Assembly: GCA_030668045.1 (NCBI GenBank)
Contig: DAOUUR010000023.1
Location: forward strand, 1-13,278
From: a bacterium
GTDB lineage: Bacteria > Zixibacteria > MSB-5A5 > GN15 > FEB-12
Direction: 5' to 3'
Length of the DNA stretch: 13,278 nt
Part shown: positions 233 through 13,038 of the stretch, piece by piece
Position numbering within the stretch: position 1 is the stretch's first letter
How the letters are laid out: every line of letters starts with the position of its first letter
Translations under genes and position numbers: made by a program
Notes under the pieces: generated by a model
Seen by the model: the letters and a program-made list of their open reading frames with translations, nothing else
Told to the model about the DNA's origin: nothing
Databases searched by the model: none

Positions 233-1306
233 CTACTCTTGATCTTCGGTCTGGGTCATCGCCTCTGGGGCACCAAGCTGCTGTTTCACTTTGGCCATTA
301 TCTCGCTGCGAATATCTTCGTGCTCGTCGAGGAATCGCTTGGCGTTTTCGCGCCCCTGGCCGAGACGTTCCGACCCATAACTAAACCATGCACCTGATTT
401 TTCGACGATATTGTGATCGGCGGCAATATCAAGCAGTTCACCTGTGACGGAAATGCCCTTGCCATAGATGAGGTCAAACTCCGCTTCCCGGAAAGGTGGA
501 GCCACTTTGTTCTTGACCACCCGCACCCGTGTCCGGGAGCCGATCACTTCCAGATTGTCCTTGATAGTGGCGATCTTGCGAATATCAAGTCGCACCGTCG
601 AATAAAATTTGAGAGCGTTGCCGCCGGTGGTGGTCTCCGGGTTACCAAACATGACACCGATTTTCATCCGAATCTGATTGATAAAAACCACTGACGTTTT
701 CGATTTTGAAATGATCGCCGTCAACTTTCGCAGCGCCTGTGACATCAGACGGGCCTGCAAACCCATATGACTGTCACCCATGTCACCCTCGATTTCCGCC
801 TTTGGTGTCAGTGCCGCTACCGAATCGATAACAACGATATCAACCGCGCCGGATCGTACCAACGTCTCGGTGATCTCAAGCGCCTGCTCGCCGGTATCGG
901 GCTGGGAGACCAACAATTCGTCAGTGTTGACACCAAGAGCTCGGGCATAAGTGGCATCAAGAGCATGTTCAGCATCAATAAAAGCGGCCACGCCGCCAGC
1001 TTTCTGGGTCTCGGCAATAATGTGTATGGCCATAGTTGTCTTGCCCGAAGATTCCGGGCCATAGATCTCGGTTACTCGACCACGAGGAATACCCCATACG
1101 CCAAGGGCATGGTCCAGCCCCAGCGACCCGCTCGGGATGACCTCTATCTCAAGGACCGAACTGTCACCAAGGCGCATGATTGAGCCTTTTCCAAACGACC
1201 GCTCTATCTGAGTCAGGGCGGCGTCGAGAGCTTTCTTGCGGTCAGGCATCGTACTGGTTGCCATTTCTGCTTTGCCTTTCTTTATCTGAATTTTCCTGTT
1301 TGTCAC
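233..1306 (-). CDS. recA: Recombinase A
   Basis: RecA forms ATP-dependent filaments on single-stranded DNA, catalyses strand exchange in recombinational repair, and stimulates LexA self-cleavage in organisms with an SOS response. The family signature is continuous: [20 protein letters not shown] near the N-terminus, Walker [10 protein letters not shown], Walker B-type [11 protein letters not shown], the loop region [19 protein letters not shown], and [19 protein letters not shown] with the L2 segment. The C-terminus is acidic (EDQE), as in other RecAs. Two starts are possible. The GTG at 1306 has a GGAG five bases upstream (1312-1315) and adds a lysine-rich 14-residue leader. The ATG at 1264 gives [13 protein letters not shown], which matches the usual family length, but has only a weak AAAGG about ten bases upstream. 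I kept the longer form because of the better ribosome-binding site; homology favours 1264. Confidence 0.97.
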
Positions 1307-1337
1307 GGCTTCTCCAAAGGTAAGAAATGGATCAAAC

Positions 1338-1359
1338 CGAATATATCACATTCTATTCG
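1338..1359 (-). promoter_or_regulatory. Probable recA promoter with overlapping inverted repeat
   Basis: Read on the minus strand, TGATATATT gives an extended -10 (TG, one base, TATATT; hexamer at 1340-1345). Transcription would start near 1333, about 27 bases before the GTG and 69 before the ATG of recA. No good -35 lies at 17 bases, which is common for extended -10 promoters. A perfect inverted repeat CGAATA-N10-TATTCG spans 1338-1359 and overlaps the -10, the expected place for a repressor site. It matches neither the E. coli (CTGT-N8-ACAG) nor the B. subtilis (GAAC-N4-GTTC) LexA box, so calling it an SOS operator would be speculation. Confidence 0.45.
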
Positions 1360-1531
1360 CTCATAAAATAGTTTTGTCGTATGACAGGTGAGGTCACTAA
1401 TTGTGCCCGCAAAGACCAACAAATTAACAATACTCCGGGGCTCTTTGATCAGCCCGGCAGCTCAATCAGCGAAAACCAGACGGGACTGCCAAATGGTCGT
1501 GGAGACAACAGCATGTGGTCTACCGGTCAGG

Positions 1532-1555
1532 AAAAGTGCAACCCGTTGCACATTT
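1532..1555. promoter_or_regulatory. Palindrome, candidate upstream activator site
   Basis: The core is GTGCAAC-CC-GTTGCAC (1536-1551), a perfect 7-bp inverted repeat. After one mismatch on each side the symmetry continues for three more pairs (AAA with TTT), giving 24 bases. The centre is about 120 bases upstream of the -24 element at 1662 and about 145 bases upstream of the expected start site. Enhancer-binding activators of sigma-54 holoenzyme commonly bind dyads at this range. The pairing with the promoter is inference from position and symmetry. Confidence 0.5.
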
Positions 1556-1661
1556 GAAACTTGGATTAAATAAGTCCATGTTCCGTTGTCGCCGCACTGG
1601 CCGTATTGCGGTGTATCCCAATAGGTTATAAATTCGCAAAGACATCAAACGTAACCTGATC

Positions 1662-1678
1662 TTGGCACGGTGATTGCT
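1662..1678 (+). promoter_or_regulatory. Sigma-54 (RpoN) promoter
   Basis: TTGGCACGGTGATTGCT matches the sigma-54 consensus TTGGCACG-N4-TTGCW at every defined position, with the GG of -24 and GC of -12 correctly spaced. Transcription should start about 12 bases after the GC, near 1688-1690, leaving a leader of about 60 bases before the PEP-CTERM gene start at 1748. Sigma-54 promoters need an ATP-using enhancer-binding protein; none is encoded in this window. Confidence 0.85.
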
Positions 1679-1747
1679 TTCTTCAGGGCGTAAGTATCAT
1701 TGTACACACGAGAAAAAAGATTATTACAAAATATGAGGTCGGTTCCA

Positions 1748-2446
1748 ATGAAAAAAATACTGCTATTCGCTCTGGCGGTTGTGATTCTTGCGGGCTCAGT
1801 TTCCGCCGCACCGCCACTTCAGGTTTACATCCCATCTGCCACCTACATTGATGAGACGTGGATAACTACGGAAAGTAATTACGAGGTCTGGGTAGTCGCC
1901 GATCTGTATGATGGCATTATTGATCCTGCACATCGCGCTGATCTTTATGGAATCCAGTTGATCGCCTCGCTCGGATTAGAGGGTAGTCTTGGTGCCCCGG
2001 GTGATCTGAAGATCTTCGCCGAAGACAAAACTACATTGCTTCCAACTACTTCATGGATTAATGGCCTGCCTCCAGCAGCCGTATCAGACTGGAATATATC
2101 ACCACATGGCATTTACCCATCCTGGTTCACCGAGCTCGCTGTAGAGTCCAGCACATTCGGCAAGGCGGCTACCGATGAGATTCGTAACTACCAGGATCCA
2201 ATTTCCGGCGTGGAAAGCATGGGGATCATCTACAAATACTGGGTCGAGACAAATTATGATTATCTTCACTGGGACGCATACTGCTATACCGATGGTCTAG
2301 TAATGGACAAAACCACTAAATATGTAGCTCCGTTCTCCCACGATGCTGAGTCCAGGACAGTGATTCCCGAGCCTGCTACTATGCTACTGTTCGGATTCGG
2401 TCTGGCCGGCGCCGGAGTGGTTCGCCGCTTCAGACACAAAAAATAG
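1748..2446 (+). CDS. PEP-CTERM sorting domain protein (choice-of-anchor-N-like)
   Basis: A 232-residue exported protein. A Sec signal peptide (MKKILLFALAVVILAGSVSA) leads, with cleavage after SVSA. The last 28 residues are a complete PEP-CTERM tail: IPEP at about 206-209, hydrophobic MLLFGFGLAGAGVV, then basic RRFRHKK. Exosortases recognise such tails and process the protein at the cell envelope, usually with exopolysaccharide. The middle part carries SPHGIYPSWF and APFSHDA. I recall these from PEP-CTERM proteins named choice-of-anchor N; this rests on memory, not a search. ATG 1748 is preferred over 1700 because the signal peptide begins there and GAGG (1735-1738) lies nine bases upstream. 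The gene stands alone between a sigma-54 promoter and a terminator. No exosortase or polysaccharide cluster is in view, as is common for scattered PEP-CTERM genes. Confidence 0.88.
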   Translation: MKKILLFALAVVILAGSVSAAPPLQVYIPSATYIDETWITTESNYEVWVVADLYDGIIDPAHRADLYGIQLIASLGLEGSLGAPGDLKIFAEDKTTLLPTTSWINGLPPAAVSDWNISPHGIYPSWFTELAVESSTFGKAATDEIRNYQDPISGVESMGIIYKYWVETNYDYLHWDAYCYTDGLVMDKTTKYVAPFSHDAESRTVIPEPATMLLFGFGLAGAGVVRRFRHKK

Positions 2447-2475
2447 GCAGTTCCCAAAAAATAAATTGCTTAGAG

Positions 2476-2509
2476 CGGCCCGTCGTTAATGGCGGGCCGT
2501 TTTTCTTTT
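2476..2509 (+). terminator. Intrinsic terminator after the PEP-CTERM gene
   Basis: Stem CGGCCCGTC (2476-2484) with GGCGGGCCG (2491-2499): nine pairs including one G-U, six-base loop GTTAAT, followed by TTTTTCTTTT. It lies 30 bases after the stop codon. It isolates the sigma-54-driven gene from dnaE. Confidence 0.9.
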
Positions 2510-2574
2510 GCCTTCAAGCAGAGCTCGGGCCTTACCACCTGCACCGGGCAGCATCACATAAGAACCTCTATCGG

Positions 2575-2603
2575 TTGATAAAGCTGGCAATACTCCATAT
2601 ATT
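2575..2603 (+). promoter_or_regulatory. Probable sigma-70-type promoter for the dnaE operon
   Basis: TTGATA (2575-2580), 17-base spacer, TATATT (2598-2603): both hexamers match consensus at five of six positions with ideal spacing. The expected start is near 2610, giving a leader of about 60 bases that contains the hairpin at 2627-2645. Confidence 0.6.
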
Positions 2604-2626
2604 CGGAATGATACTTATGTTAAAAA

Positions 2627-2645
2627 GGTTACGGCGTCCGTAACC
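2627..2645. promoter_or_regulatory. Perfect hairpin in the dnaE leader
   Basis: GGTTACGG (2627-2634), loop CGT, CCGTAACC (2638-2645): eight perfect pairs with a three-base loop. On the plus strand it lies 25 bases before the dnaE ATG and has no T run after it. On the minus strand it is followed directly by TTTTT (2622-2626 complement), making a compact terminator for antisense transcripts coming out of dnaE. It could also act as a leader structure affecting dnaE translation. Confidence 0.5.
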
Positions 2646-2670
2646 CGAACCAGACTGTGATGAATAAAAA

Positions 2671-5600
2671 ATGAAGCACGCTAATTTCGTACATTTACAC
2701 ACTCATAGTCAATACTCGCTGCTTGATGGCGCCTGCCGTCTTGACTCGGTTATCGAACTGGCCAAAGAGTATCGGATGCCTGCGCTGGCCATCACCGATC
2801 ACGGCAACATGTTTGGTGCGATTGAGTTTTTCAAGAAGGCGACTCGAGCTGGAATAAAACCGATTATCGGTTCGGAAGTGTATGTTGCGGGGGGGAGTCG
2901 TTTTGACAAGAGACCATCCAACATCTATCCCGATGGTGGCTTCCACCTTGTTCTGCTGGTGCGGAATCTAACGGGCTACCATAATCTGATCAAGCTTTCG
3001 ACGGCAGGGTATCTTGAAGGGTTCTATCATCGTCCCCGCATCGACAAAGAACTACTTCGGGAACATTCCGAAGGGTTGATCGCTACTTCCGCCTGCCTGA
3101 AGGGTGAGGTCAACTGGAATCTTCTCAATGGCAAAACCGATGCTGCTGTTCTGGTCGCCAGAGAATTGAACGACATCTTTGGCGAAGGTAATTTCTATCT
3201 TGAGATTCAGAACCACAATATCGACAAAGAGCTGATCATTCTCCCCCGGATCGCGGCCATCTCCAAAGAGACCGGCATCCCAATGGTAGCAACCAACGAC
3301 TGTCATTACCTGCGACGCGAAGATGCCGAGGCGCACGATGCCCTCCTTTGTATCCAGACCGGCAAGTTAGTTTCCGACACCGACCGCATGAAGTACGGCA
3401 CCGACCAGATCTACTTCAAGTCAGCCGACGAGATGACCGAAGCGCTTGGCGAGTTCCCGGAAGCCCTGGAGAATACGATTCGTATAGCCGAAGTCTGCAA
3501 TCTCGAACTTGAGTTAGGGAAATTGCAACTGCCACGCTCTCCGATACCGAAGCCGTATGTGTCATCCGATGATTATCTCGAACATCTCTGCCGTCAGGGT
3601 GTCGAGGAATTGTATTCGGAAGTGACCGCCGAGATCGAGCAACGTCTCCAGTACGAACTGGGCGTTATCAAACAGATGGGCTACGCCGGTTATTTCCTGA
3701 TTGTAAAAGACTTCTGCGATTACGCCCGCCAGCAGAAAATCCGGGTTGGACCGGGTCGTGGCTCGGCGGCCGGTTCGCTTGTCTCCTACGCTCTGCGTAT
3801 CACGACGGTCGACCCTATCAAGTTTGACCTCCTCTTCGAACGATTCCTCAACCCGGAACGCGTGTCGATGCCTGATATTGATATCGACTTTGCCGACCGT
3901 GGCCGGGATGACATCATCAAGTACGTTATCTCCAAGTACGGCCAGGAGAACGTGACTCAGATAATAACGTTTGGTACGATGGCGGCTCGCGGGGTGGTGC
4001 GTGATGTTGGTCGGGTGTTGGGCATTCCGTATGGCGAAGTTGACAAGATTGCCAAGATGGTACCGGAACGAGTCGGCGTGACACTTAAGGACGCCTTGAA
4101 GGAAACACCGGAACTGGTCGAGCTGACTGAACGCGACGGACGCATTGAAAGACTAATCAACTACGCTCTGGTGCTGGAAGGTCTGGCCCGTCACTGCTCA
4201 ACCCATGCCGCTGGAGTTGTTATCGCGCCCTCGGCTCTGACTAATTTCGTCCCGTTGTTCAAGGGATCGCGCGACGAGGTTACCACGCAGTATGACATGA
4301 AGATGGTCGAAGAGATCGGCCTGCTCAAGATGGACTTCCTCGGATTGCGAACACTGACGGTGATCGATGATGCACTGAGAATGATCGGAGAGAATCACCC
4401 TGATGTCGAAGTTGATATCGACAACTGCCCCTTAGACGATCCTGAGGTTTTCAAACTGTTCGCTCGCGGGGATACTATCGGCATCTTCCAGTTTGAATCA
4501 TCCGGCATGCGCGACTATCTGCGGAAGTTGAAACCGGAGAGCTTTACCGATATCACTGCCATGAACGCCTTATATCGACCGGGACCGCTTGACGCGCACA
4601 TGATCGACATCTACATCCAGCGTAAACATGGGGCGGCCAATATTCAGTATCAACATCCTGATCTGGAAAAGATTGTTGGGAACACGTACGGCGTTATCGT
4701 TTTCCAGGAACAGGTGTTGCACATTGCCAACCAGTTGGCCGGGTATTCTCTGGGAAAAGCCGATCTGTTGCGCAAGGCGATGGGCAAAAAAGATGCTTCC
4801 CTGATGGCTGAGCAGAAACGTGAATTCCTCTCCGGAGCAGCTACCAACAAGATTGACTCGAAGATCGCCGACGAGATTTTTGTGCAAATTGAGAAATTTG
4901 CCCGCTACGGATTCAACAAGGCACACTCGACCTGCTACGCCTATATTGCATACCAGACAGCCTGGCTCAAACGTTACTATCCCCGCGAATTCATGGCCGC
5001 GCTGATGACATCGGAAATCACCAATAGCGACCGAATACATGTTTTCCTTGAAGAATGTCGTCGCATGAGAATCAAGATTCTTCCGCCCGATGTTAACGAA
5101 TCTGATGTTGACTTTCGTGTCATCGACGGCAACATCCGATTTGGTCTGCAAGCGGTCAAGAATGTTGGCGGCAATGCAGCCGCTGCCATTATGGAAGAGC
5201 GAAAAAATGGTGGCCGCTTCCAGGACCTGGCCGATCTGGTCAGTCGGGTGCCTGTCAAATCAATCAATCGACGAACGCTGGAATCATTGATAGCCGCCGG
5301 AGCCTGTGATACGCTGACCGGCACAAGGGCGCAGAACTATAATGTGGTAGAGGCGATCCTGGAATTTGGCCACAAGGTAGCCGAGCGGACAGCGACCCAT
5401 GACCTGTTCGCCGACACCACCGGAGCCATTACCCGAGTAGCGCCTTCGCTGCCCGATATCCCCGATTGGAACACTGCGAAAGCACTAGCCGAAGAAAAAG
5501 AGTGCCTCGGGTTTTATATCTCCGGTCATCCCCTGGATAAGTATCATGACGAGATGATCCATTTTGCCGACCACAACGCGGAACGATTGGCCGAAGCTAA

Positions 5601-11722: not shown

Positions 11723-12949
11723 TTAGATGCTCTTGAGGAAATCAAGATAACGCTCGGCCCAGTCTTCGCGGCGGTGGTTGCGGGCAGCATACTCGCGGTA
11801 ACCCTCTCCCAGCCTGTCGCCGTCGATCTTGCCGGTCTTGACATCAAGAATCAGTTCGCAGAGACGATTGGTGTCGTTGGCCCGGAAGGAAAGCGCCCCA
11901 CCGGCTTTTTCCAACTCGCGAACCGGCTCTGATGTTTCCCGAGCTCCAAATACAATTGGCCGCCCCGCCGCCATATACTCATACAGCTTGGCCGGGTAGG
12001 TGCCCTTGGTAACCGGGTTGTCGGCCTTAACCTCTTTGAGGCTTTCAATCAGGATGTCGCTTGTCTGCAGAAAATATGGGATCGAATCAAGTGGCTGCAG
12101 GCCGATAAAGGTAACATTCTTGAGACCATAATCCTGCACCATGTCCTCAAGCACCGCCCGCTTCTCACCATCGCCCACAAAAACGAATCTGATATCGGGC
12201 TGGTCAATGAGCTTGCGGGCTGCCTCAATCACAACCTCGAAAGAATGTGCCCAGCCCATAGTTCCGGCGTACAGGATGACAAACTGCTCATCCCAGCCAA
12301 ATTTCGTTCGGATACCATTGGAGCCGGTATCGAAAAACTCACCTCCGACCCCGGATTTGATAGTAGTCAGTCTTTCTTTAGGTACGCCTGCGTGGAGGGC
12401 AAATTCAGTAAAACCTTCCGAGACACCAACCACACGGTCAGCATGGCGGTATACAAAGTGCACAATTTTCTTGATTGTCTTCGTGAATAACGATGGTTTC
12501 AGCGCGCCAAATTCTTCACTGCACTCCGGCTGAGGATCGCGAATCTCGATAACCAACTTCTTCCTCTTGATTTTCGAGATCAACCACCCGAGCACTGGCG
12601 TTGTCACCGGCGGGCTGGAAGCTACTATGACATCGAAATCGTCCTTGAGGCGAAACGAATTAATAACCGCCGTCAAGAGAAAAACGACAAAGCCCACCAT
12701 CCTCTTGCCGGGAAATCGGTTAGGAGCCGCCAGAACGTAGCTGCGGTACACTTTGACGCCATCCATCTCCTCGCGGTACATAAAATAGCCGCGGTATTTT
12801 TCCGGTACTATTCCATCCGGGTAGTTAGGGATAGCCGTCAGTACCGACACATCATGGCCCTGCCGAGCGAAATATCGGGAGAATTCAAAAAGCCGTCTGA
12901 CCGCCCCTTTTTCCGGCGGAAAATGCTGTGTAATAATCAAAATTTTCAT
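11723..12949 (-). CDS. Glycosyltransferase family 4 (WbuB-like)
   Basis: A 408-residue GT-B enzyme transferring a sugar from a nucleotide donor, probably in surface polysaccharide or glycan synthesis at the inner membrane face. The N-terminal acceptor domain opens MKILIITQHFPPEKGAVRRL, with FEFSRYFARQGHDVSVLTAI and NYPDGIVPEKYRGYF, typical of WbuB/WcaI-like GT4 proteins. A hydrophobic patch at about 95-110 may touch the membrane. The C-terminal donor domain has ILYAGTMGWAHSFEVVIEAA, FVFVGDGEKR and PAKLYEYMAAGRPIVFG (E324). The first glutamate of a canonical EX7E is not present, as is seen in parts of this family. ATG 12949 is used because the family begins MKIL; an upstream TTG at 12991 adds 14 residues without support. 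The ribosome-binding site is weak. The sugar and acceptor cannot be assigned. Confidence 0.9.
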   Translation of the reverse strand: MKILIITQHFPPEKGAVRRLFEFSRYFARQGHDVSVLTAIPNYPDGIVPEKYRGYFMYREEMDGVKVYRSYVLAAPNRFPGKRMVGFVVFLLTAVINSFRLKDDFDVIVASSPPVTTPVLGWLISKIKRKKLVIEIRDPQPECSEEFGALKPSLFTKTIKKIVHFVYRHADRVVGVSEGFTEFALHAGVPKERLTTIKSGVGGEFFDTGSNGIRTKFGWDEQFVILYAGTMGWAHSFEVVIEAARKLIDQPDIRFVFVGDGEKRAVLEDMVQDYGLKNVTFIGLQPLDSIPYFLQTSDILIESLKEVKADNPVTKGTYPAKLYEYMAAGRPIVFGARETSEPVRELEKAGGALSFRANDTNRLCELILDVKTGKIDGDRLGEGYREYAARNHRREDWAERYLDFLKSI

Positions 12950-13038
12950 ACAACTGCACCATAAGTTAGCCAAAAGATTGACTACGGGCAAGACCTTTTT
13001 TGAGGTCGAAAAGCCTGTGAAATAAGGGTTTTTTGATC

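What the first reader, a model, noticed from the sequence alone, without database searches (positions are those of the whole stretch)
1662..2446. Isolated PEP-CTERM gene behind a perfect sigma-54 promoter
The -24/-12 element matches consensus at every defined base, and the gene is bounded by its own terminator, so the PEP-CTERM protein is a single-gene RpoN unit. PEP-CTERM systems are known to carry the PrsK/PrsR two-component pair, with PrsR a sigma-54-type regulator, and to have PEP-CTERM genes scattered over the genome. Here the switch would control one surface protein next to recA and dnaE, far from any exosortase locus in view.
Basis: partly seen in the sequence, partly recalled or inferred. 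Interest (0 to 1): 0.7.

Follow-up and report, generated by a model that had tools for sequence, protein, structure and literature searches.

The report
RpoN-controlled sorted surface-protein regulon
In a little-known group of uncultured bacteria, the Zixibacteria, genes for tail-tagged exported proteins seem to be switched on as a set by a special polymerase factor through a distant DNA switch; the scheme was known from Proteobacteria, but the switch here looks different.

Summary
Window 1748-2446 encodes a 232-aa PEP-CTERM protein behind a perfect -24/-12 element (1663-1678), closed by a terminator (2472-2503). The host is a Zixibacteria draft genome with rpoN, one exosortase and three PEP-CTERM genes; all three carry a sigma-54 element (one weak). 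Across 61 genomes of the order, 122 of 142 scored PEP-CTERM genes have one (>=11 bits) against 0 of 142 in each of three controls and 6 of 265 other ORFs. Six of six loci from other families of the class have it too. So this is a clade-wide candidate RpoN regulon of exosortase substrates. New here is an upstream dyad, TGCA-N6-TGCA, mostly 90-130 nt before the -24 (72 of 125 promoters within one mismatch; controls 1 and 1; exact at 1537-1550), which matches the E. coli AtoC enhancer. A second dyad is TGTnCA-N5-TGnACA (38 of 125; controls 2 and 1). The PrsK/PrsR reading is not supported in this genome. Sigma-54 control of PEP-CTERM genes was published for Proteobacteria (Haft 2006); the same wiring in another phylum with a different enhancer is a variant. 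The activator gene is not identified.

The parts
1537..1550 (.). Upstream activator site, type A: TGCAACCCGTTGCA (full inverted repeat GTGCAAC-CC-GTTGCAC at 1536-1551); enhancer candidate, 113 nt between its end and the GG of the -24
   Evidence: both 4-nt arms conserved in the same-genus relative G002 while the stretch 1551-1655 is 56 of 105 identical; PWM score 19.9
1663..1678 (+). -24/-12 sigma-54 promoter TGGCACGGTGATTGCT
   Evidence: 21.5 bits on the clade PWM; 18 of 19 identical in G002 over 1662-1680
1688..1690 (+). Predicted transcription start, about 12 nt after the -12 C (inferred, not mapped)
   Evidence: inference from the usual sigma-54 promoter geometry (recalled)
1735..1738 (+). 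GAGG, likely ribosome-binding site, 9 nt before ATG
   Evidence: sequence
1748..2446 (+). PEP-CTERM protein, choice-of-anchor N family, 232 aa, signal-peptide-like N-terminus (judged by hydrophobicity, no dedicated predictor)
2363..2443 (+). C-terminal PEP-CTERM sorting segment (IPEPATMLLFGFGLAGAGVVRRFRHKK)
2472..2503 (+). Intrinsic terminator

Best explanation
The window gene is one unit of a clade-wide RpoN regulon of exosortase substrates. RpoN holoenzyme sits as a closed complex on the -24/-12 element. An NtrC-family activator binds the TGCA-N6-TGCA dyad some 110 nt upstream, loops over and opens the complex by ATP hydrolysis. The transcript starts near 1689 and ends at the terminator at 2472-2503. 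The product is exported by its signal peptide, held by its C-terminal helix and processed by the one exosortase found (C204, with an EpsI partner). Shown by sequence: the promoter, the dyad, their conservation and specificity, and the presence of rpoN, exosortase and activator genes. Inferred: RpoN use, activator binding, transcription start, export and exosortase processing. Not known: which activator gene, what signal, what the protein does.
For: Perfect element. The 3 PEP-CTERM genes found in the own genome carry it (21.5, 19.1 and 12.6 bits). 122 of 142 PEP-CTERM genes in 61 genomes score >=11 bits; 0 of 142 in the antisense, reversed and CDS controls. Cross-validated between families at >=11 bits: 51 of 65 against 0, 0, 0, and 60 of 77 against 1, 1, 1. 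Other ORFs: 6 of 265. Ten further loci from a phylum search: 9 of 10 at >=12 bits, including 6 of 6 from families outside the order. Dyad A within one mismatch: 72 of 125 promoters against 1 (reversed) and 1 (CDS). The combined pattern gives 48 places in 61 genomes against 1 for the backwards control; 18 of the 31 that I read precede PEP-CTERM genes. In the own genome dyad A is at 3 of 3 PEP-CTERM promoters (one with one mismatch) and at 0 of 8 other sigma-54-like sites that I picked. The dyad PWM finds both inverted AtoC half-sites at E. coli atoDAEB (16.1 and 13.0 bits), about 110 nt before that operon's sigma-54 element. rpoN, exosortase, EpsI.
Against: No transcript data were available. 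The degenerate promoter pattern is not enriched genome-wide. 20 of 142 PEP-CTERM genes score below 11 bits, and 33 of 125 promoters have neither dyad within one mismatch. The genes counted are not independent: some are orthologues in related genomes or neighbours on one contig. The PWMs and 50 were trained on the genes scored; only and the six outside families separate training from test. The C502 element is weak (4 mismatches to the consensus), and one of the ten new loci fails (L334, 6.2 bits). 13 of 31 combined-pattern matches do not precede a recognised PEP-CTERM gene, among them the second match in the own genome, C127. The cognate activator is unknown: C423, the best-scoring candidate, occurs also in genomes without PEP-CTERM hits.
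Confidence: 0.88

Rival explanations
1. It is the classical PrsK/PrsR-controlled PEP-CTERM unit of Haft et al. 2006, with a diverged PrsR that scores below the curated cut-off.
For: Same architecture: single-gene unit, large upstream region, sigma-54 element, distal site (PMC1569441 section 7). Best PrsR-model hit 448 bits. The second dyad TGTnCA-N5-TGnACA is 17 nt long, as Haft's motif 1 is. One NtrC-type gene (C564) lies about 3.7 kb from an exopolysaccharide sugar transferase.
Against: PrsK best hit 102 bits against a cut-off of 300. E. coli AtoC itself scores 459 bits on the PrsR model, so 448 means little. TTTACA is not enriched (16 upstream, 21 reversed, 8 CDS of 125; TGTAAA-N5-TTTACA within two mismatches 4, 8 and 0). 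blastp with five regulators and two kinases of this genome against the ORFs of 20 exosortase loci (L212-L231) found one regulator, in L225, about 5 kb from the exosortase, and no kinase; several of those loci are short, so this is limited.
Confidence: 0.12
2. The activator is a shared NtrC-family regulator (AtoC-like C423, or the flagellar-cluster type C207), so the PEP-CTERM genes are one output of a wider switch.
For: Dyad A resembles the AtoC site, and AtoC is the top NCBIfam model for C423, C207 and C13 (below cut-off). A C423 orthologue (73 percent identity) lies about 0.7 kb from a PEP-CTERM gene in G017. Homologues of the window gene in the four family-f4 loci that I listed sit beside flagellar-type genes with a kinase/regulator pair. 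13 of 31 combined-pattern matches are not at PEP-CTERM genes.
Against: Eight other sigma-54-like sites of the own genome, two of them at flagellar-type genes, lack dyad A. C423 orthologues are kept in PEP-CTERM-less genomes G013, G025, G035 and G047. C423 and C207 recognition helices differ from that of AtoC (alignment, judged by eye).
Confidence: 0.3
3. The element is chance and the gene uses an ordinary sigma-70 promoter.
For: The genome-wide count of the degenerate pattern equals the backwards control.
Against: Conservation and specificity; no sigma-70-like match on the plus strand between 1300 and 1748 in the consensus scan.
Confidence: 0.03
4. The palindrome at 1536-1551 is a small terminator on the minus strand, not an enhancer.
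For: The scan flags it as terminator-like on the minus strand (6 pairs, short T tail).
Against: The same dyad with varying centres recurs mostly 90-130 nt before the -24 in dozens of promoters, and E. coli AtoC sites match its PWM.
Confidence: 0.03

Closest known systems
PEP-CTERM/EpsH regulon of Proteobacteria (Haft et al. 2006, PMC1569441; abstract passage, other passages and section 7 read)
   Same: Single-gene PEP-CTERM units, sigma-54 motif, distal activator site; 99 of 167 proteobacterial genes there
   Different: Haft reports these motifs only from Proteobacteria among the species discussed; motif 1 ends in TTTACA and tracks PrsK/PrsR. Here: Zixibacteria, TGCA-N6-TGCA and TGTnCA-N5-TGnACA dyads, no PrsK or PrsR over cut-off in the one genome searched
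Aquincola tertiaricarbonis pepA (PMC9850573; passages read)
   Same: RpoN-dependent PEP-CTERM gene with mapped start, TGGCAC/CTGCTT
   Different: Proteobacterium with prsK, prsR and prsT; experimentally shown
Desulfovibrio DVUA0057 (PMC3333781; passages read)
   Same: A response regulator whose five predicted PEP-CTERM targets were enriched in DAP-chip
   [quoted passage not shown] different lineage
E. coli AtoC at atoDAEB (PMC3118216, passages read; sequence of L338)
   Same: Enhancer dyad TGCA-N6-TGCA about 110 nt before a sigma-54 element
   Different: Controls short-chain fatty acid catabolism; none of the five full-length regulators of this genome tested reaches the AtoC cut-off (best 496 of 714 bits)

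Membership tests
PEP-CTERM protein (PF07589 / TIGR02595) | C-terminal PEP motif, hydrophobic helix, basic end, over cut-off | tested here: met
   28.4 bits (cut-off 20.7); TIGR02595 22.4 bits (cut-off 16)
choice-of-anchor N family (NF038141) | score over cut-off 40 bits | tested here: met
   62.4 bits
Exosortase system | exosortase gene in the genome | tested here: met
   C204, PF09721 226 bits; TIGR02602 186.6 bits (cut-off 105.55) and EpsI TIGR02914 93.9 bits (cut-off 42.8) next to it; XrtA model 180.6 bits, below its cut-off of 208
RpoN regulon | rpoN present and -24/-12 element in front of the gene | tested here: met
RpoN regulon | RpoN-dependent transcript | not testable with these tools
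   no expression data
Haft Prs-controlled PEP-CTERM regulon | PrsR (TIGR02915) over cut-off | tested here: not met
   448 of 502.6 bits, own genome only (94 percent complete)
Haft Prs-controlled PEP-CTERM regulon | PrsK (TIGR02916) over cut-off | tested here: not met
   102 of 300 bits, own genome only
Haft Prs-controlled PEP-CTERM regulon | motif 1 with TTTACA end | tested here: not met
   16 of 125 upstream, 21 reversed, 8 CDS; only the TTTACA end is given in the text, the logo is not held
Haft Prs-controlled PEP-CTERM regulon | PrsT (TIGR02917) | not tested
   genome not searched; the TPR protein in the window scores 31 of 312 bits
AtoC regulon | AtoC-type regulator over cut-off (NF008469) | tested here: not met
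   five full-length regulators of this genome tested: best 496 of 714 bits (C207), 479 for C423; other activators of the genome not tested

The most novel reading that the evidence does not exclude
Zixibacteria control most of their exosortase substrates through RpoN with their own enhancer codes (an AtoC-like TGCA-N6-TGCA dyad and a second TGTnCA-N5-TGnACA dyad) and without PrsK/PrsR. Sigma-54 would then be the recurring master switch of the PEP-CTERM system in unrelated phyla, with the activator swapped.
Probability: 0.65. Interest if true: 0.65.

Novelty: new variant of a known kind. Interest (0 to 1): 0.56.

Why it matters
Haft et al. stated that among the species they discussed only Proteobacteria share the sigma-54 signature of PEP-CTERM genes. 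Finding it in most PEP-CTERM genes of a separate, mostly uncultured phylum, with another enhancer, makes the coupling of RpoN to exosortase substrates a testable general rule. It also supplies promoter and enhancer motifs that predict surface-protein genes in genomes that cannot be grown.

Tried and rejected
Identifying the activator. RR_C423 looked promising (top PrsR-model score; neighbour of a PEP-CTERM gene in G017) but its orthologue is present in genomes without PEP-CTERM hits. The regulator of the flagellar-type cluster beside window-gene homologues in family f4 was considered, but sigma-54-like sites at flagellar-type genes of the own genome lack dyad A. C564 (near an exopolysaccharide sugar transferase) is cut off by the contig end before its DNA-binding domain. 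A regulator about 5 kb from the exosortase in L225 has a recognition helix like that of AtoC by eye, but no close orthologue was found in the stretches held.

A first combined-pattern search missed the window by one base of spacing and returned 3 places against 2 for the control; the shifted search is. A third seed (CAAT-N2-GTTAC) had only 4 seed sites in the promoter set and was dropped, although such k-mers stood out. Dyad B is the weaker motif: with the PWM 66 of 125 promoters passed, controls 7 and 4. PEP-CTERM genes in the named exosortase loci: a rough pattern found 2, in L216 (promoter 10.9 bits, dyad A exact but 191 nt away) and L226 (21.8 bits, no dyad; a record titled Proteobacteria). 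My working label 'fliL-like' for the gene behind the other perfect site (C217) was not borne out: Pfam gives only a weak MgtE_N hit.

Rows dropped: of 150 PEP-CTERM genes fetched, 142 were scored; 8 were left out because no start was found, there was too little upstream sequence, or no signal-peptide-like N-terminus. The match list was cut by the tool, so weaker PEP-CTERM hits were not taken. In some searches only the 125 genes with a promoter score of at least 10 were used. In one search I read 31 of the 48 matches. In one search only ORFs of at least 150 aa with ATG starts in the stretches held were used.

Full report
Observation. The -24/-12 element TGGCACGGTGATTGCT lies at 1663-1678. The ORF starts at ATG 1748, 71 nt after the -12 GC, with GAGG 9 nt before it, and encodes a 232-aa protein with a signal-peptide-like N-terminus and a PEP-CTERM tail. 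It belongs to the choice-of-anchor N family (62.4 bits, cut-off 40). recA is divergent upstream, and a terminator at 2472-2503 closes the unit.

Host. The window is contig C552 of a 3.03-Mb, 622-contig, 93.85 percent complete assembly. The exosortase of this genome is 96 percent identical to one in a record titled only 'bacterium', and 56-69 percent identical to seven records titled Candidatus Zixiibacteriota and to records titled GN15, FCB group and Calditrichota; I place the host in Zixibacteria by that. The genome has one rpoN match, one exosortase match with an EpsI partner, and three PEP-CTERM genes over cut-off.

Is the promoter more than chance? The motif alone is not: with up to two mismatches it occurs 346 times against 358 for the backwards control. 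Its place is. I collected 150 PEP-CTERM genes from the listed matches of 61 genomes of the order, 142 of them usable. In the 200 nt upstream of the start, 78 of 142 have a match with at most two mismatches, against 1 antisense, 2 with the backward pattern and 2 inside the gene. With a refined matrix 122 of 142 reach 11 bits against 0, 0 and 0. Trained on one set of families and tested on the other, 51 of 65 and 60 of 77 pass, against 0, 0, 0 and 1, 1, 1. Other ORFs in the same genomes pass in 6 of 265 cases. Ten extra loci from a phylum-wide search pass in 9 of 10 cases at 12 bits, including 6 of 6 from families outside the order. In the own genome all three genes pass (21.5, 19.1 and 12.6 bits). 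Genes counted here are partly related to each other, so the counts are not independent trials.

The enhancer. Upstream of these promoters I found a dyad, TGCA-N6-TGCA: exact in 32 of 125 promoters, within one mismatch in 72 of 125, against 1 and 1 in the controls, mostly 90-130 nt before the -24. The window has an exact copy, TGCAACCCGTTGCA, at 1537-1550. In the same-genus genome G002 the two arms are conserved (8 of 8) and 1662-1680 is 18 of 19 identical, while 1551-1655 is 56 of 105; the stretch nearer recA is also well kept (188 of 221). A second dyad, TGTnCA-N5-TGnACA, occurs in 38 of 125 promoters against 2 and 1. A search for the first dyad plus a sigma-54 element at the right spacing found 48 places in 61 genomes against 1 for the backwards control; of 31 read, 18 precede PEP-CTERM genes. 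In the own genome the dyad marks the PEP-CTERM promoters (3 of 3, one with one mismatch) and none of eight other sigma-54-like sites that I picked.

What it resembles. The matrix built from these promoters scores 16.1 and 13.0 bits on the two inverted AtoC half-sites before E. coli atoDAEB, which also lie about 110 nt before a sigma-54 element; that site was verified experimentally according to PMC3118216 (passages). I recalled this resemblance first and then tested it. It suggests that the activator reads DNA as AtoC does; none of the five full-length regulators of this genome that I tested reaches the AtoC cut-off.

PrsK/PrsR. Haft et al. (PMC1569441, passages and section 7) predicted sigma-54 control of proteobacterial PEP-CTERM genes, with PrsK/PrsR as the matching pair, and said that among their species only Proteobacteria share the motifs. 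In this genome no gene reaches the PrsR or PrsK cut-offs; the relatives were not searched. The best PrsR score, 448, is about what E. coli AtoC also gets (459). TTTACA is not enriched. Support in other lineages exists: Aquincola pepA (PMC9850573, passages) and Desulfovibrio DVUA0057 (PMC3333781, passages); an activator gene near a PEP-CTERM operon is noted in Thioalkalivibrio (PMC5744179, passages).

Which activator? Open. The genome has at least eleven sigma-54 activator genes or pieces. C423 has an orthologue about 0.7 kb from a PEP-CTERM gene in G017, but it is also kept in genomes without PEP-CTERM hits. C564 lies about 3.7 kb from an exopolysaccharide sugar transferase but is cut by the contig end.

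Novelty. Literature searches: 'PEP-CTERM' with 'Zixibacteria' gave 0 papers; with 'sigma54' 7; with 'sigma-54' 6; with 'enhancer binding protein' 2; broader ones are. I saw no title on this wiring outside Proteobacteria and relatives, but I opened only the five papers named here; a cyanobacterial paper that holds both terms (PMC9260433) was seen in the listing only. The library holds open-access papers only. I therefore rate it a new variant of a known kind.

Noticed in passing
L038 (G000:C448) 610-3919; also L296, L297, L306, L310, L321: A short RpoN-type PEP-CTERM gene (119 aa) lies between a phage terminase-large-subunit-like gene (phrog_2, E 9e-21) and a phrog_16951 gene (E 4e-16). tblastn finds both neighbours also in G001, G002, G012, G045 and G046, and the phrog_16951-type one in G008, G022 and G113; the short PEP-CTERM gene itself was found in G001, G002, G008, G012 and G022. 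It looks like a kept phage-derived cassette that carries host-regulated PEP-CTERM genes.
   Followed up: partly
L321 about 1097-1280: In G045 the same cassette keeps the dyad and the sigma-54 element, but the ORF behind it stops after 36 residues, just past the signal-peptide-like segment.
   Followed up: no
C279:8632, C509:2354, C559:8168 in G000: Near-identical sigma-54-like sites TGGCACGCCRTTTGTW follow three different NtrC-type regulator genes; they lack dyad A.
   Followed up: partly
L316, L323: Dyad A plus a sigma-54 element, about 180 nt before large Ig-domain secreted proteins that are cut at the locus end; no PEP-CTERM tail in the part seen.
   Followed up: no
L308, L309, L311: Dyad A plus a sigma-54-like site 25 nt before a conserved 120-124-aa ORF in three family-f2 genomes; no Pfam match for the one tested, L308.
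   Followed up: no
L279, L284, L285, L286: Homologues of the window protein sit beside flagellar-type genes with a histidine kinase and an NtrC-type regulator (flagellar names recalled from the sequences).
   Followed up: partly
window 11726-12991: WcaI-like glycosyltransferase on the minus strand of the same contig (172 bits, cut-off 276).
   Followed up: no
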